A stretch of DNA of 64,000 nt. It comes from Artocarpus heterophyllus. Lineage: Eukaryota; Streptophyta; Magnoliopsida; Rosales; Moraceae. The notes under the pieces were generated by a model. The model was given only the letters and a program-made list of their open reading frames with translations, searched no databases and was not told the origin of the DNA. The stretch covers positions 16,827,770 through 16,891,769 of the forward strand of contig CM046333.1 of the NCBI GenBank assembly GCA_025403435.1. The letters run 5' to 3'. Below are positions 19,170 to 59,278 of this stretch, piece after piece. The position numbers and the translations under genes were made by a program. The first letter of the stretch is position 1, and each line of letters begins with the position of its first letter.

Positions 19170-21136
19170 TGTAACACCCCTATGTGGGGGGTTAACAGTT
19201 TTAAATAAATAAAAATAATTTTAAATTTTATATTATTTAAATCAATTAAACAATGCCCATGGGTCTTTAAACAACAAGAAAAATAAAAATAAACGTTTTA
19301 AATACAAACCACAGTTTTTAGTGTAGCACCAAATATATATAATTACAGTCATCATCACCATAGTACAATTCCCAAATAACTTAACACAGCCATAAAAAAA
19401 AATAATACAACTCTTACATGTTGTAGATAAGTTGTAATTAAACAGGGTCTTCTAACACGAAAACAGCAGGATTGTTTTCGTTTATTCCTCTTCAAATATG
19501 TTGCACTGAGTTCCACCTGAGATATGAAGATATGATAGGGATGAGCATCGACATGCCCAGTAGGGAAATCATGACTCACCTTATGGTTTATCCATTACCA
19601 CATTAAAAACTGCATGGTTAGTAGGTTACATCATATTCCAGATTATGAGGTTTATTATGATCACATCTTATGGATACCGTAGTTAATCATTACCAAGTGT
19701 CATAATTACACATTTATACAAATATTACCAATCATCATTGTTCCTAGGTATCCATGTTAAATTGAGTATCACTCAACTCATCGAAACCCAAATGGGCGCA
19801 CTTGATCACCCCATAAACATTCCAAGGGTGTTCCGGTGAGGGGACATCAAGCCCCGAGTCCTCACCAAATCAATTCCTGTACAGTGTGTTTTGGGACTTT
19901 CAACCCAAGGAAGCGTCATCACCTTCCCCCTATTTTACCTTTTTGGGTATTCATGCCCAAGGACGTAACCGCCGCCCTCTTCATGTCTCACCATTTCTCT
20001 ATATTAAATCATTATTAATAGAGTCAGTTTTCCTAACCATGCTTCTCAATTTATAACATGTGTCAATTCATTATGTTCCTCGCCGTACAATACAAGACGA
20101 GTCCATGTCATAGTTTCATATGTGATACTCATATAATATCAGTTCAACATAGATATATATATATTGCGGCAAAACAATCAATTTTAATTCTATAAAAACC
20201 TCACAAAAATGAGTAATAGAATCCCTACCTTTCAAGCTTATCAACAATCTTTTAATCCTGGAATCAATTAACGTTAGCTCCACACATCCTTGACCCTAAG
20301 GCATGCATAAGGACAATTAAAACTAAAGCACAACGTATAATCACATTCATAAGTGAGTTATGTGTAAACCCGTCTACTAGTGCCATTAAAGTATTTTTAT
20401 GCATTAAACATGGAGAAAATGCATACTAAAAACTAAGTTTAGATTAAAGAAAACCTACCTCAAAACTTCTTTGAAAAGCACCAAAGTTTGGGTTATCAAT
20501 CAAGCTTGAATTAACTTTAAAACCGCCTCGATCATCGTTGGGAATTATAATTGTCTTGGCCACAAAGAGAGCTTTGTGCTCTATGTCTTTAGTTAGAAAT
20601 TTGAAGTGAGAAGGGAGAGAATGAGAACTAGAGAAGAAGGTGGTGATAGTTAAATAAAAAGATATCAAAATGCTTAAGAGGAATGAGATGTTTACGGGGA
20701 AAAGTTGTAAGAAGAAACAAAAGAGTCTTAAAGGAAAATATCATCTTGTCTCCCATGAAGACTTTTAGCAAATAATGCCAACATAATTGAGGGGATAATT
20801 GGAGTGAATTATAGAAGAAGATAAGGAAATAATTAATTAGGTGGTTGAGAAATATCTCCATGTCTTCTATGAATTGACGGAAAATAATTCAATGTCCCCT
20901 TCGGATACCTTTAGCAAAATGAGAAGAAGTCTATATAATTGAGCAATAATTTAGGGAGACAAGATTGGTAGAAGTAAGTGTTGGTAAGTTTTGAATGTTT
21001 CTTAGGAAGACTTGGTAAGAAAATACTAAAATGGTATTTTTTTAAAATGATCATAAACAACTTAGTAATTTTAAATAGTCACATTTTATTCATTAAATTT
21101 TACAAAATTATGCCCGTTAAAAATACGGGTGTTACA
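19170..21136 (-). repeat. E2 LTR, left copy (3' LTR)
   Basis: 1967 bp, same length as and apparently identical to 26041-28007. The stretch of about 19598-20355 is nearly identical to the core of the E3 LTRs, while the flanking parts are only loosely similar to E3. Confidence 0.93.
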
Positions 21137-21174
21137 GCTCTCCCCTCCTATAAAAATTTCGTCCTCGAAATTTC
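21137..21174 (-). promoter_or_regulatory. E2 polypurine tract and conserved palindrome
   Basis: The minus-strand purine run AGGAGGGGAGAG abuts the LTR. 21154-21174 is the AAATTTCG...CGAAATTT palindrome also found at this position in E1 and E3. Confidence 0.75.
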
Positions 21175-21191
21175 GTACACTGATTACAATG

Positions 21192-22376
21192 TTAAAACAA
21201 ATGTGGGTACTTTTCTCTCATTTCAGATTCAAGTTCCCATGTGGCTTCCTCCACATCATGGTGTTGCCACATCACTTTCACCAGAGGAATTCCACGACGA
21301 CGTAATAATTTTATTTCATGATCCAGTATTTGAACTGGAATTTCTTCATAATTCGTATCTCCTTGAATTGGCACATCTGTCCACATGATCACATGTGAAG
21401 GGTCGGGTTCATACTTTCTCAACATCGATACATGAAACACATTATGTACATGAGACAATTGTGGTGGTAGGTCTAAACGGTATGCCAACGTTCCAATGCG
21501 TTCCACAATCTCAAACGGTCCTGTATACCTTGGTGCTAACTTTCCTTTAACACCAAATCGAGATACACCTCGTTTTGGTTTCACTTTTAAGAACACAAAG
21601 TCTCCGATCATGAACTCTAAAGGTCGTCTCCTCTTATCTGCATAACTCTTTTGTCGACTTTGAGCTGTCTGAAGACGTTCGCGAATAATCTGGATCTTGT
21701 CCGTTGTTTCTCTGATAAACTGAGGCCCAAGTTCAAGACGCTCTTCCTTTTCAGCCCAACACAATGGAGATCTACAAGGTCTACCATATAAGGCCTCATA
21801 TGGAGCCATTCTAATACTTGCTTGGTAACTGTTGTTATATGCGAATTCAACATATGGCAGCTGTGCAGCCCAATTTGTTCCAAAGTCCAGCACACAAGCC
21901 CGAAGCATATCCTCGAGAATCTGAATGACACGTTCAGATTGTCCATCTGTTTGAGGATGAAAAGCTGTACTAAAATTCAATTGAGTTCCCAAGGCCCTCT
22001 GCAATCCTCTCCAAAATTTCGACGTGAAACGTGTATCTCTATCGGAAACTATTGACATTGGCACTCCATGCAACGTCACTACCTTTTCCACGTACAATTG
22101 ACATAATTTTGAGACACTATAATTAGTTCTGATTGGGATGAAGTGGGCTGTCTTAGTTAAACGATCTACAATTACCCAAACGGCGTCATGCCCTATTTGA
22201 GTCTTAGGAAATCCAGTAACAAAGTCCATTGTCACATGATCCCACTTCCATTCTGGAATAGGTAAGCTCCTCAACTCGCCTCCAGGCTTTTGATGTTCCG
22301 CTTTAACCTGTTGGCACGTCATGCACTTAGAGACAAAGGTTGCTACATCTCGTTTCATTCCTCGCCACCAGTATTG
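21192..22376 (-). pseudogene. E2 integrase and chromodomain-like tail, downstream of a premature TGA
   Basis: This is the in-phase continuation of gag-pol after TGA 22377-22379. It starts [10 protein letters not shown] and has an ATG at 22358. It holds the second half of the HHCC zinc finger (CMTCQQVKAEH), the catalytic core with the MDFVTGFP Asp, the VSDRDTRF Asp and the HPQTDGQSERV region with the final Glu. The C-terminus (VMWQHHDVEEATWE...YPHLF) resembles a Tekay chromodomain. No other lesion is visible. The equivalent residue in E1 is Arg (KRQYWW), so AGA or CGA to TGA explains the stop. Unless the stop is read through, integrase is not made from this copy. Confidence 0.9.
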
Positions 22377-25300
22377 TCATTTTAGATCCATATACATTTT
22401 TGTGCTTCCAGGATGAATAGCAAACTTTGAACGGTGAGCCTCATCTAGCACCGCATGCCTGAGATATGGATCCTCTGGAACAACTAATCTTCCTTTGTAA
22501 AGTAAAAATCCTTCTGGCTCAATCTGCCATCCATCCAGTTGTTCTCCATTTTGTATTTGTTTCCAAACCCTACGTAATCCTTCATCGTGCCATTGTCCTT
22601 GTTTTACTTTCTGAATTAACGTAGGAGTTGCTATCACATTGAATAAGAAAGCTCTCTCGTTATCTTCATAATATTGCAAGTTGAAGTCGGCGATAGTGAC
22701 TCGTCTCCAATCTTCCAATGCTAAACTGGCTATACGTCCGTTGTTCTTACGACTTAGAGCATCTGCCACGGCATTTGCTTTTCCAGGATGATATTGGATA
22801 CTAAAGTCATAGTCCACCATGTACTCAGTCCATCTTCGTTGCCTTAGATTGAGATCCTTTTGAGTAAACAAATATTTCAGACTTTGATGATCTGAATATA
22901 GCTCGAACTTTGCGCCATATAGATAACATCTCCAAATTTTGAGTGCGAAAACCACAGCAGCTAACTCAAGATCATGTGTGGGGTAGTTCCTCTCATGGGG
23001 TTTCAACTGGCGTGAGGCGTAGGCAACTACTCGTCCATGCTGCATTAACACACAACCCAAACCGTTTCCTGAGGCATCAGTGTATACTGTGTAAGGCTCC
23101 TCGTTGTTAGGTATGATCAGCACAGGTGCACTAGTGAGTCTTCGTTTCAGTTCCTCAAATGCTTCTTCACATTTATCATCCCACACGAACTTGACATTCT
23201 TCCTTGTGAGTTTTGTTAATGGAGAAGCAATCTTTGAAAAATTCTCTACGAAGCGTCGATAGTATCTAGCTAGTCCGAGGAAACTTCGAATCTCTGACAC
23301 GTTCTTTGGTCGTTCCCAATTTAGCACTGCTTCAATTTTGGAGGGGTCCACTGAGATGCCTTCTTCAGAGACAACGTGTCCAAGGAACTTGACCTTCGTC
23401 ATCCAGAAATCACATTTTTCTCTTTTTGCATAAAGACCATGTTCTCTCAACGTTTGTAGAGCGATCCTCAAATGCTCAGCATGTTCTTCTTCGTTTTTAG
23501 AATAGATCAAGATATCATCTATGAAAACAATGATAAATTGATCTAAGTACGGTCGAAAGACACGGTTCATCAAGTCCATGAAAGCCGCTGGTGCATTAGT
23601 CAACCCGAAAGGCATGACAAGAAACTCAAAATGACCGTAGCGAGTCCGAAAAGCTGTCTTTGGAATGTCCTCTTCTCTTATCTTCAGTTGGTGATATCCG
23701 GATCGTAAGTCAATCTTTGAGAAATAGCAAGATCCTCCTAACTGATCGAACAACTCATCAATTCGGGGTAGAGGGTACTTGTTCTTGATAGTCAATCGAT
23801 TAAGCTGGCGATAATCGACACAGAGCCTCAACGATCCGTCATGTTTCTTCACAAAAAGTACTGGAGCTCCCCAAGGTGATGTACTTGGTCGAATAAATCC
23901 TTTTTCCAGTAATTCGTCCAACTGCTTCCTCAATTCCACTTTCTCAGCAGGTGCCATTCGATACGGGGCAATAGAAACAGGCGCTGCTCCTTGAGTTAAG
24001 TCGATGACAAACTCAATTTCTCTATCAGGCGGAAGTCCGGGCAATTCATCTGGAAAAACATCTGAAAATTCATCCACCACAGGAGTGTGAGAGGATAGGT
24101 CACTCTTCTTTAGTTCTCCATCTGAAGCAAAGATCGTCCCAAGATTGGTGAAATTCCTTCGTCCTCCAATACAAGCCTTTAGCACCGGGGCTGGCGTCAC
24201 TGTTCCTGTTTTTGCCTGAAATTCGATGACTTGTCCATTCTTGGTGAATAAAGAGACACGTTTCCTATGACAATCTACTATTGCCTGGTATTTAGTTAGC
24301 CAATCCATTCCTAAGATTACATCAAACTCTGTCATAGTTATTACATATAGGTCAGCCGATAGTTTATGTTCTCCTATAACAATACACACTGATTTACAAA
24401 TTATGGATACTTCAGCTATCCCGCCCATTGGTGTACTAAGGGTTAATGATGAACTACATGTCTCAGTTTCTAATTGTAGTACGGAAGCAAATAACATAGA
24501 TATAAATGAATGAGTGGCACCAGTGTCAAATAATACATGAGCCCAAGAATGAGACACGTGAATCATACCGTCTACAACTGAGTGATCAGCCTGTTTTCCT
24601 TGTCCAGTTGTAGCCGTAATTGCATAAGCTTGTGCTGGTGCTTTTCCTTTATCACTTTTTCCTCGGTTTCCTTGGCTACTACTAGCCTTATTATTATTTC
24701 TCCCAGAAAAATATGGCCTTTGATTCACTGAGCCTTGTGGAGTCGGTTGGAAGTTCTGATTAGCATAAAAATTGGAACCCTGTGGCCGCTGTTGATAGTT
24801 GTACTGAGGCTGGAACCCTCGAGGTTGAGTTACTGAGACTTGGGAAGCTGGAGTGTTTTGCTGAGGCGCTCCACGATTTTGACTCCCTCCCCAAACAGTG
24901 GAGCCAAAATGACTTCCTTGTGGCCTTGGTGCAAAGGATGATTGTGTAGGGCGGTTAGGGCAATTTCTCCTCAGATGTCCCACTTGTCCACAGTTATGAC
25001 AAGCATACGGTTGGAAACGACCACTGCCAGAAGATCCACCACCAATAGTCACTCCACTATGCTGAATGACTTGCCCTTGTGACTTCTCTTTCTTACTTAT
25101 TTTCCTTTGACGCCCACCAGAACCCTTATACTCTCCATAGGAGTTATTTAGTTCTGTCTTTGCCCGCTGTGCCGCAGCTACAAGATCAAGAAAATCTGTT
25201 GATGGAACAGCAGCTATCATTTGTCTGATTTTCGGCCTCAGGTTATTTCTAAATTTTTCGCATCTCGCCATTGGATCCGATACAGCCCCGGGATTGTAGC

Positions 25301-25889
25301 GAGACAATTCTATAAATCGAGCATGGTATTCAGCAACTGTTGTATCTCCCTGCACCAGGTTTTCAAATTCTCGCATCATTGCTTGCCTATGGCTCTGAGG
25401 AATATAGGTGTTGCGAAAAATGGTTTCGAACTGCTCCCATGTAAGATTCGGCACGTCATAGTCGTCTTTCTGAAGATCCCACCATTCTTCGGCTTTACCC
25501 TCAAATATATATGTTGAAAAGCTAACCCAATACTCCCGTGGAATCCTCAAGGTGTCCAACTTCTTTTTGACTGCCTTTAGCCATTGTTCTGCTATGACCG
25601 GGTTAGGTTCTCCACTAAATGTGGGTGGTTTCTGCTTCATAAACTCCTTCAACAGAGTTAGATGTCGTTGTTCGGGATCACGAACCTCCACAGGTCTTTG
25701 CACATTTTGTAATGCTTGAAGAATTTGTCCTAAATTATTTACTTCTGGTGCAGCTGGCGGGGATTGTGTTGCATGTCGTAGTTGCTCATCTTCTTGAGCT
25801 TGTTCCATCGGTTCCGGTTGCTCAACTTCTTGAGCATGTTCAACCGGTTGTGACAGCTCAGACGATTGCATTTGACGTCTTGGTGGCAT
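22377..25889 (-). CDS. E2 Gag-protease-RT-RNase H polyprotein (ends at premature TGA)
   Basis: The start chosen is the ATG at 25887-25889 ([10 protein letters not shown]), matching E1 MAPRRRS; the open frame itself extends to 25931 without another ATG. Numbered from 25931: gag core ([21 protein letters not shown]), zinc knuckle [14 protein letters not shown] near residue 310, Gln/Asn-rich linker, aspartic protease [12 protein letters not shown] near 465, reverse transcriptase with VDYRQLN and FIDD near 803, RNase H with YTDASG near 951, and the start of the integrase zinc finger ([12 protein letters not shown]). About 1170 codons remain open. This copy could make structural and polymerase proteins that act on other elements, though not a full integrase. 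Confidence 0.93.
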
Positions 25890-26000
25890 AGTTTCTACTG
25901 GCTGTGAAAATTTAACTAGGATCAGTACCAAATGATGATGACATTAACACCTAACTTTAAAACCATTCCCAAAGATTAATTTTTAAGGTGGTGATATACC

Positions 26001-26033
26001 CCCTAGGTTAATCGAACCTAGGCTCTGATACCA
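26001..26033 (-). promoter_or_regulatory. E2 primer-binding site with extended tRNA-like arm
   Basis: On the minus strand TGGTATCAGAGCC (26021-26033) matches the initiator tRNA-Met 3' end, 7 bases inside the right LTR. Next to it 26002-26022 is an inverted repeat (CCTAGGTT...AACCTAGG) with loop bases that resemble the T-arm of the same tRNA. The same arrangement is in E3 at 57262-57293. Confidence 0.8.
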
Positions 26034-26040
26034 AAAATTC

Positions 26041-28007
26041 TGTAACACCCCTATGTGGGGGGTTAACAGTTTTAAATAAATAAAAATAATTTTAAATTTT
26101 ATATTATTTAAATCAATTAAACAATGCCCATGGGTCTTTAAACAACAAGAAAAATAAAAATAAACGTTTTAAATACAAACCACAGTTTTTAGTGTAGCAC
26201 CAAATATATATAATTACAGTCATCATCACCATAGTACAATTCCCAAATAACTTAACACAGCCATAAAAAAAAATAATACAACTCTTACATGTTGTAGATA
26301 AGTTGTAATTAAACAGGGTCTTCTAACACGAAAACAGCAGGATTGTTTTCGTTTATTCCTCTTCAAATATGTTGCACTGAGTTCCACCTGAGATATGAAG
26401 ATATGATAGGGATGAGCATCGACATGCCCAGTAGGGAAATCATGACTCACCTTATGGTTTATCCATTACCACATTAAAAACTGCATGGTTAGTAGGTTAC
26501 ATCATATTCCAGATTATGAGGTTTATTATGATCACATCTTATGGATACCGTAGTTAATCATTACCAAGTGTCATAATTACACATTTATACAAATATTACC
26601 AATCATCATTGTTCCTAGGTATCCATGTTAAATTGAGTATCACTCAACTCATCGAAACCCAAATGGGCGCACTTGATCACCCCATAAACATTCCAAGGGT
26701 GTTCCGGTGAGGGGACATCAAGCCCCGAGTCCTCACCAAATCAATTCCTGTACAGTGTGTTTTGGGACTTTCAACCCAAGGAAGCGTCATCACCTTCCCC
26801 CTATTTTACCTTTTTGGGTATTCATGCCCAAGGACGTAACCGCCGCCCTCTTCATGTCTCACCATTTCTCTATATTAAATCATTATTAATAGAGTCAGTT
26901 TTCCTAACCATGCTTCTCAATTTATAACATGTGTCAATTCATTATGTTCCTCGCCGTACAATACAAGACGAGTCCATGTCATAGTTTCATATGTGATACT
27001 CATATAATATCAGTTCAACATAGATATATATATATTGCGGCAAAACAATCAATTTTAATTCTATAAAAACCTCACAAAAATGAGTAATAGAATCCCTACC
27101 TTTCAAGCTTATCAACAATCTTTTAATCCTGGAATCAATTAACGTTAGCTCCACACATCCTTGACCCTAAGGCATGCATAAGGACAATTAAAACTAAAGC
27201 ACAACGTATAATCACATTCATAAGTGAGTTATGTGTAAACCCGTCTACTAGTGCCATTAAAGTATTTTTATGCATTAAACATGGAGAAAATGCATACTAA
27301 AAACTAAGTTTAGATTAAAGAAAACCTACCTCAAAACTTCTTTGAAAAGCACCAAAGTTTGGGTTATCAATCAAGCTTGAATTAACTTTAAAACCGCCTC
27401 GATCATCGTTGGGAATTATAATTGTCTTGGCCACAAAGAGAGCTTTGTGCTCTATGTCTTTAGTTAGAAATTTGAAGTGAGAAGGGAGAGAATGAGAACT
27501 AGAGAAGAAGGTGGTGATAGTTAAATAAAAAGATATCAAAATGCTTAAGAGGAATGAGATGTTTACGGGGAAAAGTTGTAAGAAGAAACAAAAGAGTCTT
27601 AAAGGAAAATATCATCTTGTCTCCCATGAAGACTTTTAGCAAATAATGCCAACATAATTGAGGGGATAATTGGAGTGAATTATAGAAGAAGATAAGGAAA
27701 TAATTAATTAGGTGGTTGAGAAATATCTCCATGTCTTCTATGAATTGACGGAAAATAATTCAATGTCCCCTTCGGATACCTTTAGCAAAATGAGAAGAAG
27801 TCTATATAATTGAGCAATAATTTAGGGAGACAAGATTGGTAGAAGTAAGTGTTGGTAAGTTTTGAATGTTTCTTAGGAAGACTTGGTAAGAAAATACTAA
27901 AATGGTATTTTTTTAAAATGATCATAAACAACTTAGTAATTTTAAATAGTCACATTTTATTCATTAAATTTTACAAAATTATGCCCGTTAAAAATACGGG
28001 TGTTACA
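26041..28007 (-). repeat. E2 LTR, right copy (5' LTR)
   Basis: 1967 bp, in register with 19170-21136, with no difference found by eye in the stretches checked. It carries the promoter of the minus-strand transcript. Confidence 0.93.
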
Positions 28008-40619: not shown

Positions 40620-41871
40620 GGTAATATACACATTAAGCATATGTTTAAGGAGTCAATTCTAACTGTTTTTTAGTTTAAATTAAAATTATTGTTTGACCTA
40701 TAACGATTTAAACTATAGATTATGTTTAAACTTATTTTTTGGTTCAAATTAATAAAAACTTACACTTTGATGAACTTAAAATTATAAATTTAAACTATAA
40801 ACTATGATTCGAATTTATTTTTAATAGTAGATAATTTACAAGTCTATGGTCATTGGATAAGATGTTTAGAGATTTTGTGACTAAATTAATTAACAAAATT
40901 GGGAATGGAAAGTCTCTCTCAGTCTCAACCTCATAAATATGCATTATTCAAATATATATAAAAATGATGATATGTGCCGTTGTTCTCGCGGAAAGATTTT
41001 TTCTGTTCTTCTCTCTGTAGTTTTCCTTCAAAGTTTTGCAGCGCAGACAGGTGAATGAATTGGTCTTTTCGTTCCACGGTCCAATGGCTGGCTGTTTTGC
41101 AAGTAATAGAGAGACTAGAGAGGGACAGAGAAAGAGAACAGAGAGAATATTTGTATTATTATATTATATTTAAAATAATATATATGGCCTTGGAGGCTGG
41201 TGGGGCAGGTGACACGTCATGATTCAGTCCTTTAAAACATAAATATATTTATATCCTTAGCCTTCTGCCCATTTGCCTACTTCTTCTACTAAAACTTAGA
41301 TACTAAACTCCCTTCCCCGCGTAAAGCCCCGTGCCCTTCAGAGAAGAGCCTAGTGGAGAAAAGGGCCTTGAGAAAGAGATACCAAATCCTTTCCTTAACC
41401 TTCACGCCTCCATTTAAATCTCTCGAGATCTTTTTGATCCTTCTCTTTCTCTTTCCGTCGTAAGTTCACTCACTCAATTCTTCTCTGATGTTGTGAAATC
41501 ATTTCTGTCAAAATTTCTTTTTCCTTTTTGCTCAAATTTCTCTCTCCACCTCTCACTTCTCGCAATAAAAACATCACTGTTTTTCTATTTCCCCCCTCTC
41601 CCCCTGCCCTGCTCCAAGCATTAAAAACAACCCCCTCATTCACTCACACTCTTTGTCTCTCTCTATATTCCATTGAGTGTTGACTCTTTTTTTCTTCATC
41701 ATCTTGAAAATCACTTCTCTTTAAATTCTCAAAAAAGCAGAGGAAACTTTTACAGAGCTTTTTCAGAAACAGAGTGGTAAACCAAGAAAAAACAAGTTGT
41801 ATTATTTTGTTCTTGATCATCTTTGGCATTTCTTTCTCACTTTTCTTGATATCATATCTTTATTTCCCAAC
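40620..41871 (+). promoter_or_regulatory. YUCCA promoter and 5' untranslated region (approximate)
   Basis: An AT-rich stretch with TATA-like strings (about 41160-41185 and 41240-41255) is followed by pyrimidine-rich DNA up to the ATG, as is usual for plant leaders. TGACACGTCATG at about 41213 is a possible bZIP site. I cannot fix the transcription start. The GTAAGT near 41460 and the AG near 41766 would allow a leader intron, which is unproven. Confidence 0.4.
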
Positions 41872-43820
41872 ATGGGTTCTTGTAAAAACGTAGATCAACA
41901 ACCAAAACCATGCAGTACTACTACTGCTACAGTTTGGGTCCAAGGGCCGATCCTAGTAGGCGCTGGCCCATCAGGCTTAGCCGTCTCCGCTTGCCTCTCC
42001 AAACACAGTATCCCTTCTCTTATCCTCGAGAAAAGCGACTGCATAGCCTCTCTTTGGCAACACCGAACCTACGACCGCCTCAAACTCCACCTCCCCAAGC
42101 ACTTCTGCGAGCTCCCTTTCCTCGGTTTCCCCGAAGACTTCCCCAAATACCCCACCAAACACCAGTTCATCTCCTACATGGAATCCTACGCCTCCCACTT
42201 CAACATCAAGCCCCGCTTCAACCAGAATGTCCGCACGGCTGAGTACGATTCCGTTTCCGGGTTTTGGACAGTTCGGACCGACGAATTCGAGTACATTTCG
42301 CGGTGGCTCATTGTCGCCACGGGCGAGAATGCGGAGCCGGTCGTGCCAGAGATTCTCGGGATTGAGAGGTTTCAGGGGAGGGTTGTCCACACCAGTGGGT
42401 ATAAGTCCGGTTGTGAGTTCAGAAACCAGAGGGTTCTGGTCGTTGGGTGTGGGAATTCCGGCATGGAAGTTAGCTTGGACCTTTGTAGACACAATGCCAT
42501 TCCTCACATGGTCGTTAGAAATACGGTACGATATTTTCTCTCATAAAATGTTAAATTTTTATTTTTTAGACACTTATTATTACTATTATTATCATTATTA
42601 TTTTGATTAACGTTTGATTGTTTGATGATTAGGTCCATGTTCTGCCTAGAGAGATACTAGGATTCTCAACGTTTGGAATTGCAATGGCACTTGGCAAGTG
42701 GATACCATTAAAGCTAGTTGACAAGATCCTTCTACTTGCAGCCAGCTTCATGTTGGGTAATACTGACAAATTAGGCCTTAAGCGACCGAAAACCGGTCCG
42801 ATTGAGCTCAAAAAGGCCACCGGGAAGACTCCGGTTCTTGACGTCGGAGCCTTGTCCCAAATAAGGTCCGGAAAAATTAAGGTAATATAAACTGATCAAT
42901 TTTTCTTGTGTACTGCAATATTTTTATTTTTTGTATTATTTTTAAGCGGCAATGTTGTTTTTCAGGTGATGGAAGGTGTGAAAGAGATAACGAGGAATGG
43001 AGCGAGGTTCATGGATGGACAAGAAAAGGAGTTTGATTCTATAGTTTTAGCAACAGGGTACAAAAGCAACGTTCCTACCTGGCTCAAGGTAAATAACATT
43101 GATATTATTAAATTTAATAAATAAATAAATAATAGAAAGTATAATTTATACTCAGCTGCCATTCTTTTAGTTTTTAGTTCTATCTTATTATGAATCACCT
43201 ATCGCTTTCTCTGTCTTGGAAGCATGCACAGACAGGCCACAAAGCTACAAATCCATTCTTTTGTTCTCCATGCTAAAAAGAATAAAATCACTTGGGATTG
43301 GTTTGAGCTGTTATACCTTTGATGCTATTGTTTTTTAATTTAAGAAAAAAAAAGTATTGTATTCCTAGAAAGTGTCTTCTTTCGCTTCTTTCTTATTTTT
43401 TGCCCTTTTTTAAAGAACAATGCTTAGAAACACGCACCTCATGCAAATAATAAGTGGATTAGGATTCCGTAATGTAAGATTTACAAACGAGACCCACTTT
43501 CTATAATTTTCTCGAGCATTTTATTTCTTAAAACCAAAAAAATAAAAAGGCAAAAATTATATCTATTCTGATTTTGATTACATATATGCCCTCAGAGTTG
43601 TGACTTTTTCACCAAAGACGGAATGCCGAGAACGCCGTTTCCTAACGGTTGGAAGGGAGAGAATGGACTTTATACGGTCGGCTTCACGAGAAGAGGCCTC
43701 CTTGGAACGGCCTCTGACGCCGTTAAAATTGCCAAAGACATTGGTGATCAGTGGAGGGCAAACAAGGAATTATGCAAGAGCTCTTGTAATTCGCATCTTA
43801 TCCTAGTCAAAAAATCATAA
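41872..43820 (+). CDS. YUC4: YUCCA flavin monooxygenase (indole-3-pyruvate monooxygenase), YUC4-like, four exons
   Basis: It converts indole-3-pyruvate to indole-3-acetic acid with NADPH and O2, the last step of the main auxin pathway. Exons: 41872-42525, 42633-42881, 42966-43088, 43596-43820. All introns are phase 0 with GT-AG ends, giving 416 residues, normal for the family. The ATG is the one before GSCKN; the frame upstream has no nearer Met. Motifs: FAD-binding GAGPSG (30-35), ATGENAEP (149-156), FMO-identifying FxGxxxHxxxY (167-177), NADPH-binding GCGNSG (192-197), ATGYKSNVP (from 330). The short MG-C N-terminus, four-exon layout and C-terminal [20 protein letters not shown] region fit the YUC1/YUC4 clade. 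The exact ortholog is inferred. No defect is seen. Confidence 0.95.
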
Positions 43821-51083: not shown

Positions 51084-51088
51084 CTATA
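51084..51088. repeat. Target-site duplication of E3, left copy (CTATA)
   Basis: CTATA directly precedes the E3 LTR and recurs at 59274-59278 after its end. Confidence 0.88.
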
Positions 51089-53063
51089 TGTAACGCCCCT
51101 ATATGGGGGTTAACAGTTTTTAATGAGATAAAATAAAAATAAATAATAAAAGTAAAACCTTAAAGATTAAAATTTGCCCGGGACTTAAATGAAAACTCTC
51201 AACTCAAAAATAAAAATATAAACGACAAATAAACCACAGTTTTAATGTAGCACCTTAAATTTAATAATATAAACTGTTGTCATCATCATTTTATCCCTCA
51301 ACACATTGTAATACAGTCACAGAAAGTAACAATTGATGCTTACATTATCATGAAGAACATTCTCAACAATTGAAGCAGTCCCAATGTAATATAGCTACAT
51401 CACGTCCTCAACTATATTTCTCGTAACCACCTTACACTTAGTGAGTCCTGAAAAGATATAAACATAAGGGTATGAGCAACACTATGCTCAGTAGAGAAAG
51501 CCATTACTCACCTTTAGGTTTTTATCATTACCACATTAAAACCTGCATGGTTAGTAAGTCACATCATATTCCAGATTATGAGGTTTATTATGATCACATC
51601 TTATGGATACCGTAGTTAATCATTACCAAGTGTCATAATTACACATTTATACAAATATTACCAATCATCATTGTTCCTAGGTATCCATGTTAAATTGAGT
51701 ATCACTCAACTCATCGAAACTCAAATGGGCGCACTTGATCACCCTATAAACATTCCAAGGGTGTTCCGGTGAGGGGACATCAAGCCCCGAGTCCTCACCA
51801 AATCAATTCCTGTACAGTGTGTTCTGGGACTTTCAACCCAAGGAAGCGTCATCGCCTTCCCCCTATTTTACCTTTTAGGGTATTCATGCCCAAGGACGTA
51901 ACCGTCGCCCTCTTCATGTCTCACAATTTCTCTATATTGAATCATTATTAATAGAGTTAATTTTCCTAACCATGCTTCTCAATTTATAACATGTGTCAAT
52001 TCATTATGTTCCTCGCCGTACAATACAAGACGAGTCCATGTCATAGTTTCATATGTGATACACATATAATATCAGTTCAACATAGATATATATATATTGC
52101 GGCAAAACAATCAATTTTAATTCTATAAAAACCTCACAAAAGATGAGTAATAGAATCCCTACCTTTCAAGCTTATCAACAATCTTTTAATCCTGGAATCA
52201 GTTAACGTTAGCTCCATACTCCCTTGATCCTAAGGCGTACATAAGGACAATTAAAACTAAAGCACAACATACAACTACATTCATAAAATTTATTTTAATT
52301 TAATCTTAGAATTTCAAGAAATAACCACTGCCCATAGAGGTATTACAAAGTTTAACAATATAAATTTTCTGTCTAGGGCATATACACTTAGACTTCATAC
52401 ATATGCTCCAAAATAGCAACAAACATATACTTAGGTTTAAGAACGCAAATTTGAATAATCCTTTAGTATAAAAGAAAATTTATAAATGAAAGACTAAATT
52501 TGTTCATAAGATTCTAACCTCGGATTATGGTTAGTTGGAAGCTTGAAATGGTTTCAAAACAGGTTCCTTTACTTCGGTATGACTGAAATTCTTGCTCAAA
52601 TGGAGGTGATGGTGGCTGATTTTTATGGCTGCCTTGAAGAAGTTCTCTAAGTATTTTGCTTCAGCAAAGAAATGAGAAGAAGAGTGTGGGAACCGTGGAA
52701 GAAAAAGGAAGAAAAGATGAAGTCTTTGAAAAGAAGTGATAGAAACAATTATAGAGGAGACATGTTGAAGCATGTCACGGAGGAAATAAAGAAAATGAGT
52801 GTCAAGAGTAGTTGGAAAAGATATTCTTATGTCTCATCTAAAGACTTTAACACACATAATGCCAATATGACATTTTTGAGATTTATTAGAAGTTCTAAGG
52901 CTTTTTAGTAATCATACTAAATAAATATAGGAGAATTTTAGAAAATTTAAAAATAGATAAAAATAAATATTATAAAATAAATTTAAATGAAGCAATTTTT
53001 TTTTATACATTAAAAATTAATTTAATTACCTCAATACCCGTTAGGAGAATAACGGGTGTCACA
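51089..53063 (-). repeat. E3 LTR, left copy (3' LTR)
   Basis: 1975 bp. The core of about 51530-52287 is nearly identical to 19598-20355 of E2. The outer parts share only the ends and scattered blocks with E2. Short frames of 60-80 residues that recur in both LTRs have no known domain. Confidence 0.93.
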
Positions 53064-53101
53064 ACTCTACCCCCTAAAAGAAATTTCGTCCTCGAAATTT
53101 C
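53064..53101 (-). promoter_or_regulatory. E3 polypurine tract and conserved palindrome
   Basis: The minus-strand purine run AGGGGGTAGAG abuts the LTR. 53080-53101 is the same AAATTTCG...CGAAATTT palindrome as in E1 and E2, kept although E3 has lost all pol sequence. Confidence 0.75.
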
Positions 53102-54017
53102 AATTCTAGTAATACTAGTAAAAATTATGATTCCACTATGATTCCAATTCTGAGTCTAAACCGTTAATGTTGTTTGTCCTCCAAATTTAAGTTATCGTAT
53201 CTCCACTTATTTACTTGCATGATAAATCTTACTCCTAAATCCCTCAATGAGAGTATTTCTGACAAGTTTCAACTTATAACACCGTATAATAGTCTAAGAA
53301 TCTGATCAGGCATACATATTGACCATATCATGATTCCAGTCCTTCATTGTCCATGGACCGTGATTTACAATCACATTTAAGGAGATTGCCAGAGAAATTT
53401 TATATACTTCATCTTTAGGTTCCTTTTCCTTTTTGAGTAAGGAAAAGTCAAATATATTTGATTTCATACCTCAACTAATAAACTAAAACATAATCATAAA
53501 ACATATATCACAAACACTTTTATTCAAAACTATACATTAAACTTACTCATAGAGATATTAAACGGAATCTCAGAGTTGCAAACATACCCGACATATTTTT
53601 CATTAAACAGCTATCCTCATGACACAAACATTCAACCCAAATAATATACTCATATTTCATATGGAATATCCCTATAACTGACTCTGGTACTTCCACATAA
53701 TATTAACAGAATATTACACATTACAAACATGATACGGATACGTTTCGAGAGTACAAGGCACTCCGTATACCAGCTATCCATATCATGCATGGTTAGAGGA
53801 TACAAAAACATCGATAAACAAAAGATCGGACCTTAAGAAGGATGCGTTTCGAGAGCATCAAGTACTCCGTATCCAGCCATCCCGGCATTAGGCTCAATGA
53901 ATCTAAAAGATTTAACAACGACGTACCACAAGAAACACAGAATACAAGGCAAACGGTTATTCGTAACACATGAAATACGGACACACATGCCTACATGCCA
54001 AAGATAAAACAAAAAGA
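53102..54017 (-). other. E3 non-coding segment downstream of LOG
   Basis: No ORF with a recognisable product. A ~50-bp unit with TTTCGAGAG...ACTCCGTAT occurs twice (about 53738-53787 and 53846-53890), in the same orientation. It could be the 3' untranslated region of the captured transcript plus element sequence. Confidence 0.5.
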
Positions 54018-54668
54018 TTACAGATGGAGATTCAAATCAATTGGCCGCTCCCGGCTTTCCCTTTCCCATTCAAGCTTGGATGTTGCAGTGTCGGATTCTG
54101 GATGTATGATTTGCATTTTATCTATCAATTCCTCAGCTGTTGAAGCAGTGACAAAGATTTGTCTCTCCGATTCTGTAGTGATGTTTTCTTCCACAGCGTA
54201 ATCTAGAAATTTCAAAAGACCGTCATAAAAACCCTTTACGTTCAGCAGTCCCAAAGGTTTGGAATAAAAGCCCAACAATTGCCCACAAGCAACTATAAAT
54301 ATTTCCTCAAGAGTACCTAGACTACCAGGTAATGCTATAAAAGCATCAGAATTATAGATTATGTCTTTAAAATTTTTAGGGATACTCCTGACTCCTTCTC
54401 CCTTACCTATGGCTTCCTTACAAAGGTTTCCTTCAACTGAAATATGAGGCCAAATTCTTACATCAGTAGCGTCGCTAGACCTAGCTGCTAGTGCCATATT
54501 TACCATCATTTTTATACTACCACCCCCATAGATTATGTTAATCTTCTTGCGTGCTAGGACTTGCCCTAAGTGATTTGCAGCTTCTAAATAAGCTTTATCT
54601 TTTCCAAGGCTGGAACCACAAAAGACACAGACATTCTTTATTTTCTTCGTGGACTGGGAGGTAGACAT
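54018..54668 (-). CDS. LOG: LOG-family cytokinin riboside 5'-monophosphate phosphoribohydrolase-like protein, intronless, inside E3
   Basis: LOG enzymes release free cytokinin base from its riboside monophosphate in the cytosol. ATG at 54666-54668 gives 216 residues, normal for LOG; the open frame extends 13 codons further only with a GTG. Motifs, numbered from the ATG: VCVFCGSSLGK near 13-23, IYGGGSI near 45-52, SDAFIALPGSLGTLEE near 105-120, PLGLLNV, and a C-terminal SKLEWE. Fold-level motifs are kept, but the family signature PGGxGTxxE reads PGSLGTLEE, and the basic segment that usually precedes SDAF is NFKDIIYN. Plant LOG genes normally have several introns. This copy has none, so it probably derives from cDNA. 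It lies in the element's sense direction and could be driven by the LTR. A retained but altered activity or a decaying passenger are both possible. Confidence 0.85.
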   Translation of the reverse strand: MSTSQSTKKIKNVCVFCGSSLGKDKAYLEAANHLGQVLARKKINIIYGGGSIKMMVNMALAARSSDATDVRIWPHISVEGNLCKEAIGKGEGVRSIPKNFKDIIYNSDAFIALPGSLGTLEEIFIVACGQLLGFYSKPLGLLNVKGFYDGLLKFLDYAVEENITTESERQIFVTASTAEELIDKMQIIHPESDTATSKLEWERESRERPIDLNLHL

Positions 54669-54707
54669 ATTTGGTTTATAGAAGTGGTTGCTTAATGTCT
54701 GCTCCAC

Positions 54708-55419
54708 TTAGACTTCGGGTTCTACATGAGTTTTTAAAGATGAGAAATATACAAAAAGGGCTAAAGAGATAGACAAGTAGGTAATGAAAAGGTAATCCAA
54801 AGATTTAAACAAAATCTTGCGCGGATAAGAAAGTAAGATAAGGTGATTGATAGTTTACAGAAAATCTGATTCACTTTTTGAAAAAGATTAGACTCTAATT
54901 GTATAACTTTTGACAATTGAGAACAATTCGACAGAAGACCCTCATGACACAACTGTAGACTTTTTGACAAATATACACCAAGTCTAGAAATTTAATATAA
55001 ACGACAAATACTGTAGAACTTTTGAAATTTGAGACACAAATCTTGAAATATCTGGATAAGCTTTTCAAAATTCAAACATATTACTGTACCGTATGTAACG
55101 TGTCTGATAAGATAATATATTTTATTATATATATATTTAAGAAAATCATAAATTAAATAAGATATTAACACTTACTGTATCAATCTAATAATCACAATTA
55201 TTTCAAACACAAAAGCAAATATTCTGAGTAAAAGAAAAACACAAACTGTTGAACATCAGCTAAAACTGCTTCAAATAAGTAAAGACTAAATAACCTTTAT
55301 AGAGCGATGACTTATTCCCCATCCAGTTTTCTTATGGCTTGACAAACAGGATCTAGAAATACCATATTCCTGAGGCGTTGTCTTTCTGTATAAAATTTAG
55401 GCCAGAGTTTAAAAATAGC
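54708..55419 (-). other. E3 spacer between the two ORFs
   Basis: About 0.7 kb of AT-rich DNA. No frame with a known domain, no promoter I could place. Confidence 0.5.
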
Positions 55420-55833
55420 TCATTGAACATATCCACTAGGGTGACCGTGGAGAGGAGGATGGATGCTATCCAAGTTCTCCTTTGAAAGTCCATCCCTACA
55501 AAACCTTATTTTATCCTCTCTATTCGTAGACATATAACCAGGTGAAGTACATTTACCGTTACAATTTTGTCTTCCACATTTGTTACAAGTGACCACGATG
55601 GCACGAGCTCTTCTTTTCATTGCACTTCGACTGGTACCTGTTCCTGGTAAACCGACATCTTGACTAAAGTCACTCGGACGGATTTTCCCCTCTATCAACA
55701 TTCTCACATCACAAGGGATACCAAAACGCATAAGAATCCACAACCGAGTAATTCTAGCCTTGTATTTCTTTCTGAGAATCTTTTGGGAGAGTGATGGGAA
55801 ATACTTTCTCAGATGTTGGTACTTTGGGTCCAT
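55420..55833 (-). CDS. Unrecognised 137-residue Cys-rich basic protein inside E3
   Basis: ATG at 55831-55833, 137 codons, with codon structure intact. The N-terminal half is very basic (KKYKARITRLW). The middle has RSAMKRRARA followed by a compact cysteine cluster CNKCGRQNCNGKC (CX2CX4CX3C), which may bind zinc. The C-terminus is rich in His, Pro and Gly (IHPPLHGHPSGYVQ). I do not recognise the family. It is not a standard gypsy gag knuckle (CX2CX4HX4C), since the His position is Cys. It lies 5' of LOG on the same strand, so one LTR-driven transcript would carry both. It may be another captured host fragment, a relic of gag, or an element-specific protein. Confidence 0.5.
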   Translation of the reverse strand: MDPKYQHLRKYFPSLSQKILRKKYKARITRLWILMRFGIPCDVRMLIEGKIRPSDFSQDVGLPGTGTSRSAMKRRARAIVVTCNKCGRQNCNGKCTSPGYMSTNREDKIRFCRDGLSKENLDSIHPPLHGHPSGYVQ

Positions 55834-57261
55834 GATGAGATGAAAGAAGAGTAAATAGAAAGGAAAAATTAAGATAGTAAATTGCAGAATCCTAGAATTC
55901 CTTCTTCTTTTGGAGGAAAAGAAGAATTTTTAATGAGAAAGAAGAGGATTTGCGATTTAGAGAGAAAATAACAAATTAAGAGAGAAAAAGTGAACTCGGA
56001 GAAATAAGCTCTTATGCACAGTAAACGTATATGTAAACAATAATTAAACCACTGTATATGACACGTATAGAGACCACGTGGGAGAGACAGTGTGAATCAA
56101 ACTGATTTAGGATTTGAACTAGGCCCAAATGTTCTTAGTTGAAAATGGTCAGGTTGTTTTGGGCCTTAACACATTTAGAACGAGTTAAATAACAAACATA
56201 AAATTGAAAACCAATTCGTATAAATCTTAAACCCAATTCAAAGTCCACTATAGATAAGTTAACTATGAACAACAAATCTAATTTAACGACAACAAGGATC
56301 TTCCTGAATGATATTTAAAATCATTTCATAACAACACAATCTTCCAGCAACTCAAATAATTTTGTTTTAATCAAAACCTTATTGAACAATACATACACCC
56401 ATATGTTATTGATAATACTCAACATCTATCAATGGATTCATCATCATTACTACCAAGGGTTTAGAATGCGACTAACCTTGAAATCAATACGATTTACGTC
56501 TTTCAACGTAGACCATATCAACGAACAAAGACACTAGATGTTACTACTTAGGAACATCTACAATCTCCACAATTCTACTTAACAAAACCTTAGGTAACCA
56601 AAAGATTCACTGATACACTTAAATACAATGTACGTAACAAAATATTCCAATTTTGAGATTCATGCATTCTAGACTTTACACAGTCTCAACAGACCAAAAG
56701 TCTAACATTTATCTCTCTCAAGATTCAATACCATGATTCCCAACTTATATCATATTCCTCAAATATATAGAACTTTTAAGAAAAGACATTGACACTTATG
56801 TGCTCCATCGAATCCACACATAATCATTACTTAGGTTTGAATCAATTACGAAAAATTTGGCATATCTATGCCAAACTTTAAAATCAATAAATCAAGCCTT
56901 ATATTTCTTATTGTTTTTCACGAGACAAAAGGCTTTTAAATTCTCGTATCTACACAAATTTCTCATCGTTTATACGAATTAGATATGCTTATAGATCCAA
57001 ATATTATACGAATCTCTCATAAGCATTCTACTTATAAACTCATTCCATATAATTATCATTCCCTCATAACTATTAATACTTTCCTTCTATATAATTATTG
57101 TACTCATATAACCATTGATATTTTCATTCTATGGCCTTTCCATGTTACATCCTTCTAGACTGTATAAATCAATGTGAATGTTCATTTTGATGATGACAAT
57201 GAAAATTCAGCTTCAAAACCATCTCAAAAATATATATTTTTTTTAAAGTGGTGCTACACTC
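55834..57261 (-). other. E3 5' leader, no ORF recognised
   Basis: About 1.4 kb between the primer site and the 137-codon ORF. AT-rich, stops in all frames. No gag remnant is detectable by eye. The packaging signal should lie here if E3 is mobilised in trans. Confidence 0.5.
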
Positions 57262-57293
57262 CCTAGGTTAACCGAACCTAGGCTCTGATACCA
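57262..57293 (-). promoter_or_regulatory. E3 primer-binding site with extended tRNA-like arm
   Basis: On the minus strand TGGTATCAGAGCC lies 7 bases inside the right LTR. It is flanked by the inverted repeat CCTAGGTT...AACCTAGG, one base different in the loop from E2 (26001-26033). This is the strongest internal similarity to E2. Confidence 0.82.
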
Positions 57294-57300
57294 AAAATTC

Positions 57301-59273
57301 TGTAACGCCCCTATATGGGGGTTAACAGTTTTTAATGAGATAAAATAAAAATAAATAATAAAAGTAAAACCTTAAAGATTAAAATTTGCCCGGGACTTAA
57401 ATGAAAACTCTCAACTCAAAAATAAAAATATAAACGACAAATAAACCACAGTTTTAATGTAGCACCTTAAATTTAATAATATAAACTGTTGTCATCATCA
57501 TTTTATCCCTCAACACATTGTAATACAGTCACAGAAAGTAACAATTGATGCTTACATTATCATGAAGAACATTCTCAACAATTGAAGCAGTCCCAATGTA
57601 ATATAGCTACATCACGTCCTCAACTATATTTCTCGTAACCACCTTACACTTAGTGAGTCCTGAAAAGATATAAACATAAGGGTATGAGCAACACTATGCT
57701 CAGTAGAGAAAGCCATTACTCACCTTTAGGTTTTTATCATTACCACATTAAAACCTGCATGGTTAGTAAGTCACATCATATTCCAGATTATGAGGTTTAT
57801 TATGATCACATCTTATGGATACCGTAGTTAATCATTACCAAGTGTCATAATTACACATTTATACAAATATTACCAATCATCATTGTTCCTAGGTATCCAT
57901 GTTAAATTGAGTATCACTCAACTCATCGAAACTCAAATGGGCGCACTTGATCACCCTATAAACATTCCAAGGGTGTTCCGGTGAGGGGACATCAAGCCCC
58001 GAGTCCTCACCAAATCAATTCCTGTACAGTGTGTTCTGGGACTTTCAACCCAAGGAAGCGTCATCGCCTTCCCCCTATTTTACCTTTTAGGGTATTCATG
58101 CCCAAGGACGTAACCGTCGCCCTCTTCATGTCTCACAATTTCTCTATATTGAATCATTATTAATAGAGTTAATTTTCCTAACCATGCTTCTCAATTTATA
58201 ACATGTGTCAATTCATTATGTTCCTCGCCGTACAATACAAGACGAGTCCATGTCATAGTTTCATATGTGATACACATATAATATCAGTTCAACATAGATA
58301 TATATATTGCAGCAAAACAATCAATTTTAATTCTATAAAAACCTCACAAAAGATGAGTAATAGAATCCCTACCTTTCAAGCTTATCAACAATCTTTTAAT
58401 CTTGGAATCAGTTAACGTTAGCTCCATACTCCCTTGATCCTAAGGCGTACATAAGGACAATTAAAACTAAAGCACAACATACAACTACATTCATAAAATT
58501 TATTTTAATTTAATCTTAGAATTTCAAGAAATAACCACTGCCCATAGAGGTATTACAAAGTTTAACAATATAAATTTTCTGTCTAGGGCATATACACTTA
58601 GACTTCATACATATGCTCCAAAATAGCAACAAACATATACTTAGGTTTAAGAACGCAAATTTGAATAATCCTTTAGTATAAAAGAAAATTTATAAATGAA
58701 AGACTAAATTTGTTCATAAGATTCTAACCTCGGATTATGGTTAGTTGGAAGCTTGAAATGGTTTCAAAACAGGTTCCTTTACTTCGGTATGACTGAAATT
58801 CTTGCTCAAATGGAGGTGATGGTGGCTGATTTTTATGGCTGCCTTGAAGAAGTTCTCTAAGTATTTTGCTTCAGCAAAGAAATGAGAAGAAGAGTGTGGG
58901 AACCGTGGAAGAAAAAGGAAGAAAAGATGAAGTCTTTGAAAAGAAGTGATAGAAACAATTATAGAGGAGACATGTTGAAGCATGTCACGGAGGAAATAAA
59001 GAAAATGAGTGTCAAGAGTAGTTGGAAAAGATATTCTTATGTCTCATCTAAAGACTTTAACACACATAATGCCAATATGACATTTTTGAGATTTATTAGA
59101 AGTTCTAAGGCTTTTTAGTAATCATACTAAATAAATATAGGAGAATTTTAGAAAATTTAAAAATAGATAAAAATAAATATTATAAAATAAATTTAAATGA
59201 AGCAATTTTTTTTTATACATTAAAAATTAATTTAATTACCTCAATACCCGTTAGGAGAATAACGGGTGTCACA
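57301..59273 (-). repeat. E3 LTR, right copy (5' LTR)
   Basis: 1973 bp. It differs from the left copy by a missing TA dinucleotide and a G-to-A change near 58310, and a C-to-T near 58402. It would drive the minus-strand transcript containing both ORFs. Confidence 0.93.
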
Positions 59274-59278
59274 CTATA

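What the first reader, a model, noticed from the sequence alone, without database searches (positions are those of the whole stretch)
51089..59273. A young LTR retrotransposon whose cargo is an intact, intronless cytokinin-activation (LOG) gene
Seen: perfect element architecture with TSD CTATA, nearly identical LTRs, no retroviral genes, and an open LOG-family frame on the sense strand. Known: LOG enzymes make active cytokinin, and plant LOG genes have introns. Inferred: a LOG mRNA was captured by template switching during reverse transcription, and the cargo has been kept open through at least one recent round of transposition. An LTR element that spreads a hormone-activating gene could alter cytokinin dosage wherever it lands. 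I do not know a described family like this.
Basis: partly seen in the sequence, partly recalled or inferred. Interest (0 to 1): 0.88.

Follow-up and report, generated by a model that had tools for sequence, protein, structure and literature searches.

The report
Jumping element with virus-like regulator genes
A young jumping element in what is very likely a plant genome carries no copying machinery but two genes of its own, a relative of plant-virus proteins that suppress RNA silencing and a relative of a hormone-making enzyme whose key active-site residues are replaced, and the pair likely helps the element to evade or steer its host.

Summary
The element is real: LTRs at 51089-53063 and 57301-59273 (two substitutions and one 2-nt gap apart), TSD CTATA, PBS and PPT on the minus strand, no gag-pol, and an open sense LOG-family frame (54018-54668, 216 aa). 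Two things change the reading. (1) It is probably not a cytokinin-activating gene: catalytic Arg is Asn, and pocket Lys100, Glu125 and Trp129 are Phe, Ile and Gly. Of 106 relatives scored, 99 keep the Arg, but 105 changed Lys100 and all 106 changed Glu125; most end in an LxLxL tail. (2) A second sense gene was missed (55420-55833), related to carlavirus nucleic-acid-binding (silencing-suppressor) proteins. Gene models of Orobanche and Citrus hold both in this order, so the pair is likely an old cassette, not one recent mRNA capture. A gag-pol element 30 kb away (E2) shares PBS, PPT and an LTR block of about 820 nt at 94.6%, and is the likely partner. LOG (YgdH) domains in Citrus and Populus gypsy elements are in print; the companion gene, pocket changes and tail I did not find described. 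Host copy number and dN/dS are untested: the genome search did not complete.

The parts
51084..51088 (.). target-site duplication CTATA, left
51089..53063 (-). 3' LTR (element runs on the minus strand), 1975 nt
   Evidence: two substitutions and one 2-nt gap against the other LTR
53064..53079 (-). purine-rich tract next to the 3' LTR (PPT)
   Evidence: E2 has a similar tract at the same place
54018..54668 (-). LOG-family ORF from its first ATG, 216 aa; catalytic Arg and pocket Lys, Glu and Trp replaced
54021..54035 (-). C-terminal LxLxL (LNLHL) tail of the LOG-like protein; EAR-like (motif name recalled)
   Evidence: 93 of 107 TE-type LOG rows have such an end
55420..55833 (-). carlavirus-type NABP/CRP homologue, 137 aa; stops earlier than its 96%-identical relative P0121 and than the relatives of about 182 aa
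   Evidence: 48 of 120 listed relatives have 175 aa or more
55834..56170 (-). promoter-like stretch before the NABP-like ATG: two site II (TGGGCY) motifs, one G-box, pyrimidine-rich leader
   Evidence: 0 of 1000 shuffles of the 500-nt stretch held as many of both; motifs chosen after seeing the sequence
57282..57293 (-). primer-binding site TGGTATCAGAGC (initiator-Met tRNA type, recalled)
   Evidence: same 12 letters in E2
57301..59273 (-). 5' LTR, 1973 nt
57679..58496 (-). LTR block shared with E2 at 94.6% (other settings: 57666-58496 at 94.2% and 51454-52286 at 94.6% against E2 19520-20352 and 26391-27223)
59274..59278 (.). target-site duplication CTATA, right
19170..28007 (-). E2: gag-pol Ty3/gypsy element, LTRs 100% identical over 1967 nt, TSD ATTAT; likely autonomous partner family (this copy has one in-frame stop between its two long ORFs)

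Best explanation
This is a young LTR retrotransposon that has no gag or pol but carries two sense-strand genes, a homologue of the carlavirus nucleic-acid-binding silencing-suppressor proteins and a LOG-fold protein whose cytokinin-site residues are replaced; it is likely copied in trans by the nearby Ty3/gypsy family E2, and its two proteins likely act as regulators that favour the element rather than as a hormone enzyme. Shown: LTRs, TSD, PBS, PPT, the two open frames, their families, the replaced residues, the LxLxL tail, and the LTR block shared with E2. Inferred: an E2-type gag-pol supplies reverse transcription and integration; the NABP-like protein (basic stretch plus zinc-finger cysteines) binds nucleic acid and dampens silencing or alters transcription as its viral relatives do; the LOG-like protein is a nucleotide-pocket scaffold that no longer makes free cytokinin and whose tail would recruit TOPLESS-type co-repressors. 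The pair is likely inherited as an old cassette with, possibly, a promoter of its own.
For: Anatomy. NABP family: a profile search with the four-row alignment A1 gave 175 proteins at E<=1 (120 listed), named ones from Hibiscus, Orobanche, Xanthoceras, Acer, Citrus, Striga; 34 of 50 members of A4 match Carla_C4 and 32 of 50 Viral_NABP at E<=1e-3, best 1.2e-8; the first 4 of 15 Foldseek rows in BFVD are viral 'RNA silencing suppressor' proteins, none significant. Cassette: Orobanche and Citrus gene models with the NABP part first and a LOG part second. LOG residues: of 106 core relatives R99 is kept in 99, E122 in 106, K100 in 1, E125 in 0 (H 58, Q 44, N 3, G 1), W129 in 102; the window has N, E, F, I, G. 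Tail: LxLxL end in 93 of 107. Partner: PBS, PPT and LTR block shared with E2. Viral CRPs as silencing suppressors and one as transcription factor: PMC12172455, passages. Open frame over a long branch: a neutral simulation to 47% identity left no stop in 1 of 400 runs.
Against: The window's own NABP ORF scores below both Pfam cut-offs (17.0 of 23; 13.8 of 20.9), as do its close relatives P0121 and P0123; membership rests on P0122 and more distant rows. It ends earlier than P0121, so this copy may make a truncated protein. The structure model of the NABP is weak (pTM 0.37). No viral sequence was aligned with it directly, and scans of viral contigs found no relative. No DNA of any second copy was seen, so trans-mobilisation, copy number and selection on codons are untested. 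Nuclear action, TOPLESS binding and silencing suppression have no direct evidence. The long branch (1.21) and the PGS change could also mean relaxed constraint.
Confidence: 0.5

Rival explanations
1. One reading: a recent capture of a host LOG mRNA; the element spreads a working cytokinin-activating gene.
For: LOG-family frame open in sense, no introns, element young; second near-identical protein; five basal relatives (P0044, P0083, P0084, P0100, P0101) keep the catalytic and pocket residues scored.
Against: Catalytic Arg and pocket Lys, Glu, Trp replaced in this lineage; the LOG clade is separate from host LOG3/LOG8; NABP partner in the same order in other plants.
Confidence: 0.07
2. A dead hitch-hiker: an old non-autonomous element moved in trans whose two cargo frames are decaying and do nothing now; only the LTRs, PBS and PPT matter.
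For: NABP frame ends early against P0121; PGS change not in P0001; long branch; loss of catalytic Arg.
Against: 216 codons open on a branch of 1.21 changes per column, where neutral simulations without indels leave no stop in 1 of 400 runs to 47% identity and 9 of 400 to 70%; tail kept; NABP zinc-finger cysteines and NREDKI block kept; a 99%-identical LOG protein from other contigs.
Confidence: 0.25
3. Poison subunit: the LOG-like protein pairs with host LOG (whose active site lies at the dimer interface) and lowers cytokinin activation, while the NABP-like protein dampens silencing.
For: LOG fold kept; LOG works as a dimer with Glu125 and Trp129 supplied by the neighbour (PMC4979012, passages), and both are replaced here.
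Against: Most relatives scored keep catalytic Arg (99 of 106), Glu (106) and Trp129 (102), which a mere poison would not need; no dimer was modelled.
Confidence: 0.15
4. New-substrate nucleotidase: the wider family keeps catalytic Arg and Glu but has a re-shaped base pocket (Lys100 to Met/Leu/Ile, Glu125 to His/Gln), so it cleaves or senses another nucleotide; the window's subfamily is a later pseudo-enzyme.
For: Lys100 replaced in 105 and Glu125 in 106 of 106 core rows, with catalytic Arg and Glu kept in 99 and 106.
Against: No substrate shown; the window copy lacks the Arg.
Confidence: 0.2

Closest known systems
Ty3/gypsy elements of Citrus and Populus with a YgdH (LOG) domain (PMC9289625: abstract start, section 12 and passages seen; it cites Steinbauerova et al. 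2011, which is not held and was not read)
   Same: LOG-family domain inside plant Ty3/gypsy LTR elements
   Different: That screen used the reverse transcriptase domain as its marker; this element has none. No viral-type partner gene, pocket change or tail is mentioned in what I saw.
Carlavirus-type NABP or CRP (Pfam Viral_NABP, Carla_C4)
   Same: basic stretch followed by zinc-finger cysteines; Pfam matches above cut-off in relatives such as P0122, P0138, P0147
   Different: here a DNA-borne gene in an LTR element; longer plant copies have a C-terminal block (KDPVCQFIRKLDGK type) outside the Pfam-matched stretch; the window copy itself is below the Pfam cut-offs
Plant LOG enzymes (LOG3, LOG8)
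   Different: catalytic Arg, pocket Lys, Glu and Trp replaced; an LxLxL tail that the five Solanum LOG3-type rows lack
Orchid Ty3/gypsy elements with an AlkB m6A demethylase domain (PMC9289625)
   Same: a plant LTR element with an extra ORF of a kind that the paper also reports in betaflexiviruses
   Different: those carry the element polyprotein; different protein family
Non-autonomous plant LTR elements mobilised in trans (LARD type, recalled)
   Same: LTRs, PBS and PPT without gag-pol
   Different: carries two non-structural genes with relatives in other plants

Membership tests
LTR retrotransposon | near-identical LTRs with TG..CA, TSD, PBS and PPT | tested here: met
Ty3/gypsy superfamily | pol with RT-RNaseH-integrase order of Ty3/gypsy | tested here: not met
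   no gag-pol in the interior; described only as a non-autonomous element that likely works with one, on shared PBS, PPT and LTR block with E2
Non-autonomous partner of E2 | shared cis sequences with a gag-pol element | tested here: met
   but the first 784 nt of the LTR are not alike (66.2% in global alignment; 20 shuffles, mean 63.7%, up to 68.0%)
Non-autonomous partner of E2 | mobilisation in trans by E2 proteins | not testable with these tools
   needs an experiment
LOG fold family | Pfam Lysine_decarbox above cut-off, LOG fold | tested here: met
Active LOG phosphoribohydrolase | catalytic Arg99 (CgLOG numbering) and Lys100 | tested here: not met
   Asn and Phe in window and P0001
Active LOG phosphoribohydrolase | PGGxGTxxE motif | tested here: not met
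   window PGSLGTLEE; P0001 has PGGLGTLEE
Active LOG phosphoribohydrolase | release of free cytokinin | not testable with these tools
   needs an enzyme assay
Viral_NABP / Carla_C4 | Pfam gathering score | tested here: not met
   window ORF 17.0 of 23 and 13.8 of 20.9; relatives P0122, P0138, P0147 pass
Viral_NABP / Carla_C4 | basic stretch plus zinc-finger cysteines | tested here: met
   KRRAR then CxxCx4CxxxC in the window ORF
Viral_NABP / Carla_C4 | RNA-silencing suppression | not testable with these tools
   reported for viral members (PMC12172455, passages)
YgdH-bearing gypsy elements of Citrus/Populus | same LOG clade within an LTR element | tested here: inconclusive
   named Populus LOG rows and Citrus NABP-LOG models belong to the same protein families, but their LTR context was not seen

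The most novel reading that the evidence does not exclude
A widespread, old two-gene retrotransposon cassette of eudicots: a virus-type silencing suppressor and a repurposed, repressor-tailed LOG protein travel together as a counter-defence kit, first made from or shared with plant RNA viruses; carlavirus-type NABPs may even descend from such plant elements.
Probability: 0.3. Interest if true: 0.88.

Novelty: new variant of a known kind. Interest (0 to 1): 0.72.

Why it matters
A conserved pair of non-structural genes, one of a viral silencing-suppressor family, in an element without gag-pol would make counter-defence by plant retrotransposons directly testable, would link endogenous elements with plant RNA viruses by a shared gene, and would show how a hormone-enzyme fold is re-used. 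Such genes are annotated as LOG or 'hypothetical protein' in public genomes, so LOG gene counts in plants may be inflated by element copies.

Tried and rejected
Rejected: a host LOG locus between two unrelated LTRs (LTRs nearly identical, TSD, PBS and PPT in order). Rejected: chance ORF (family match). Rejected as the main reading: working LOG enzyme.

Led nowhere: viral-contig scans with the LOG alignment gave two distant loci (34% and 31% identity, L001 and L002, not followed), and with the NABP alignments A1 and A4 none. No tRNA gene in the window. The structure of the NABP-like ORF is of low confidence and its Foldseek rows are not significant. The 80-aa ORF inside each LTR (52531-52773, 58741-58983) matches no Pfam family. 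Text look-ups without a LOG, cytokinin or carlavirus hit: PMC7264820 and PMC11963269. PMC3136472 (passages) reports a betaflexivirus replicase-like sequence in cucumber, not an NABP. Paper searches: searches gave no paper; five and four, of which I opened only PMC3136472; two, on glyoxalase genes, not opened. The library holds open-licence PMC papers only.

Not answered: the genome search on the window's own assembly, the same request ten times, 'machine busy'. So no host copy count, no dN/dS, no host LOG phylogeny.
Full report
What is there. The window holds an 8185-nt LTR element at 51089-59273 with 5-nt target duplications CTATA. Its two LTRs (1975 and 1973 nt) differ by two substitutions and one 2-nt gap; at a recalled plant LTR rate of 1.3e-8 per site and year this is some 40,000 years. 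A PBS of the initiator-Met type (name recalled) stands 7 nt from the LTR that begins at 57301, and a purine tract stands against the LTR that ends at 53063, both on the minus strand. The element therefore runs from right to left and both ORFs described below are in sense. The 4237-nt interior has no gag or pol: seven gag, pol and integrase pieces of the window's other elements find nothing there better than E 0.012 (47 aa at 30%, inside the LOG frame), while they find E2's interior at once. Its longest stop-to-stop frame is the LOG frame of 229 codons, against a maximum of 153 in 300 dinucleotide shuffles. That the host is a plant is inferred from the relatives and the element types.

Not a normal cytokinin enzyme. 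In C. glutamicum LOG, Arg99 and Glu122 are the proposed catalytic residues; Met96, Lys100 and Glu121 bind adenine; Met96, His97, Lys100, Glu125 and Trp129 line the proposed prenyl site. Alanine substitution of the AMP-binding and catalytic residues, Ser19 excepted, nearly abolished activity (PMC4979012, passages). Aligned residues in 106 core relatives: Arg99 kept in 99, Glu122 in 106, Trp129 in 102, Met96 in 97, His97 in 44, Lys100 in 1 (Met 46, Leu 39, Ile 19, His 1), Glu125 in 0 (His 58, Gln 44, Asn 3, Gly 1). Five basal rows (P0044, P0083, P0084, P0100, P0101) keep Arg, Lys, Glu125 and Trp. The window and P0001 have Asn at 99, Glu at 122, Gly at 129, Ile at 96, Pro at 97, Phe at 100 and Ile at 125; the window alone has PGS for PGG. 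By eye the Orobanche models P0147 and P0164 also have Asn in place of the Arg. So the wider family keeps a catalytic pair with a changed base pocket, and this lineage has also lost the catalytic Arg. Loss of activity is a prediction.

A tail. 93 of 107 TE-type LOG rows (the 106 core rows and P0001) have an LxLxL end, often after a basic run (for example RKKLRLDLSLRL, KKRKLNLTLSL); the 14 without it are listed. The five Solanum LOG3-type rows and the five basal rows have none; the last residues of AtLOG3 were not seen. LxLxL is the EAR repression motif that binds TOPLESS (recalled); binding is untested.

The gene that was missed. 55420-55833 encodes 137 aa with a basic run and CxxCx4CxxxC. Alone it scores 17.0 bits for Viral_NABP (cut-off 23) and 13.8 for Carla_C4 (cut-off 20.9). 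A first search gave 3 relatives, of which P0122 passes the Carla_C4 cut-off and P0121 and P0123 do not. A search with their alignment gave 175 proteins at E<=1, 120 listed, the named ones from Hibiscus, Orobanche, Xanthoceras, Acer, Citrus and Striga, and one 'Clostridioides difficile' fragment on a 293-nt contig that looks like contamination. Of 50 aligned members 34 match Carla_C4 and 32 Viral_NABP at E<=1e-3; P0147 and P0138 pass both curated cut-offs. In the 120 listed rows NREDKI is kept in 101 and CxxCx4CxxxC in 64 (100 by a looser pattern). A Foldseek search with the weak model put four viral 'RNA silencing suppressor' proteins first (fig latent virus 1, Helleborus mosaic virus, grapevine Kizil Sapak virus, chrysanthemum virus B), at E 0.11 to 1.7, thus not significant. 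The window's ORF ends before its 96%-identical relative P0121 does, and 48 of 120 listed rows have 175 aa or more, so this copy may be truncated; longer relatives exist.

A cassette. Among the 120 listed NABP rows 6 carry a precomputed LOG-family domain besides the NABP one: four from Orobanche, two from Citrus. In a rescan of 10 picked rows P0147, P0164, P0186 and P0216 matched Lysine_decarbox and Viral_NABP above cut-off, LOG part second; P0191 matched LDcluster4 above cut-off but no NABP model at 0.01; P0172 matched Carla_C4 above and LDcluster4 below cut-off; P0166 matched both below cut-off; P0232 matched nothing. Six of these eight end in LxLxL (all but P0147 and P0186). These are automatic gene models that probably join two neighbouring ORFs; the order, NABP then LOG on one strand, is that of the window. 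Upstream of the NABP-like ATG lie two site II motifs (-294, -332), a G-box (-247) and a leader of 75% pyrimidines in the last 60 nt. In 1000 shuffles of the 500 nt, 22 had a G-box, 1 had two site II motifs, and none had both. The motifs were chosen after seeing the sequence, and their names are recalled.

The partner. E2 (19170-28007, minus strand, TSD ATTAT) has LTRs identical over 1967 nt, gag, protease, RT, RNase H and integrase matches and a chromodomain match below cut-off (the integrase core match is below cut-off too), with one in-frame stop between its two long ORFs. E2 and the element share the PBS and its surroundings, the PPT surroundings, and an LTR block of 818 nt at 94.6% (about 833 nt at 94.2-94.6%). 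The 784 nt before that block are no more alike than shuffles (66.2%; 20 shuffles, mean 63.7, max 68.0); the 367 nt behind it are more alike (73.7%; mean 65.4, max 68.7). Such a mosaic is what template switching between co-packaged RNAs would leave. It is the best sign of trans-mobilisation here, but not a proof.

Selection. No DNA of a second copy could be reached, so dN/dS is open. In neutral simulations without indels on random codons of the same base composition, 1 of 400 runs kept 216 codons free of stops to 47% identity, and 9 of 400 to 70%; for 137 codons 20 of 400 to 64% and 51 of 400 to 80%. The LOG frame is thus likely kept; for the NABP the case from this copy is weaker and rests on its relatives.

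How it likely works. Shown: the anatomy, the two protein families, the replaced residues. Inferred: E2-type proteins copy the element; the NABP-like protein acts as viral CRPs do, which are reported as silencing suppressors and, for chrysanthemum virus B, as a transcription factor causing hyperplasia (PMC12172455, passages); the LOG-like protein binds a nucleotide or a LOG partner and recruits co-repressors by its tail. I put about 0.9 on the anatomy, 0.65 on trans-mobilisation by E2-type proteins, and 0.35 on the regulator reading of the pair.

Novelty. LOG domains in gypsy elements are known in print. The viral-type companion gene, the pocket change, the tail and the gag-pol-less two-gene form did not turn up in the paper searches (listings, few papers opened) or in what I saw of PMC9289625 (section 12 and passages), PMC11963269 (abstract, one passage), PMC7264820 (term look-up, no hit) and PMC6317226 (passages). 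Steinbauerova et al. 2011 could not be read and may hold more.

Noticed in passing
19170-28007: E2, a Ty3/gypsy element with 100% identical 1967-nt LTRs and nearly complete gag-pol (one in-frame stop): a very recent insertion.
   Followed up: partly
51454-52286, 57666-58496, 19520-20352, 26391-27223: Sharp LTR mosaic: about 820-830 nt at 94-95% between two elements whose LTRs are unrelated upstream of the block.
   Followed up: partly
7095-11600: A second gag-pol Ty3/gypsy element (E1) on the minus strand, about 73% alike to E2 over 1238 aligned columns of pol.
   Followed up: no
35572-38184: Ty1/copia-type gag and integrase frames.
   Followed up: no
41797-42546: Host-like flavin monooxygenase frame (FMO/Pyr_redox), YUCCA-like by eye.
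   Followed up: no
53736-53779 and 53840-53882: Short imperfect direct repeat (about 84%) just behind the LOG stop inside the element.
   Followed up: no
52531-52773 and 58741-58983: An 80-aa ORF inside each LTR, identical in both, without a Pfam match.
   Followed up: no
P0235: A 'Clostridioides difficile' protein of the NABP family on a 293-nt contig, probably plant contamination.
   Followed up: no
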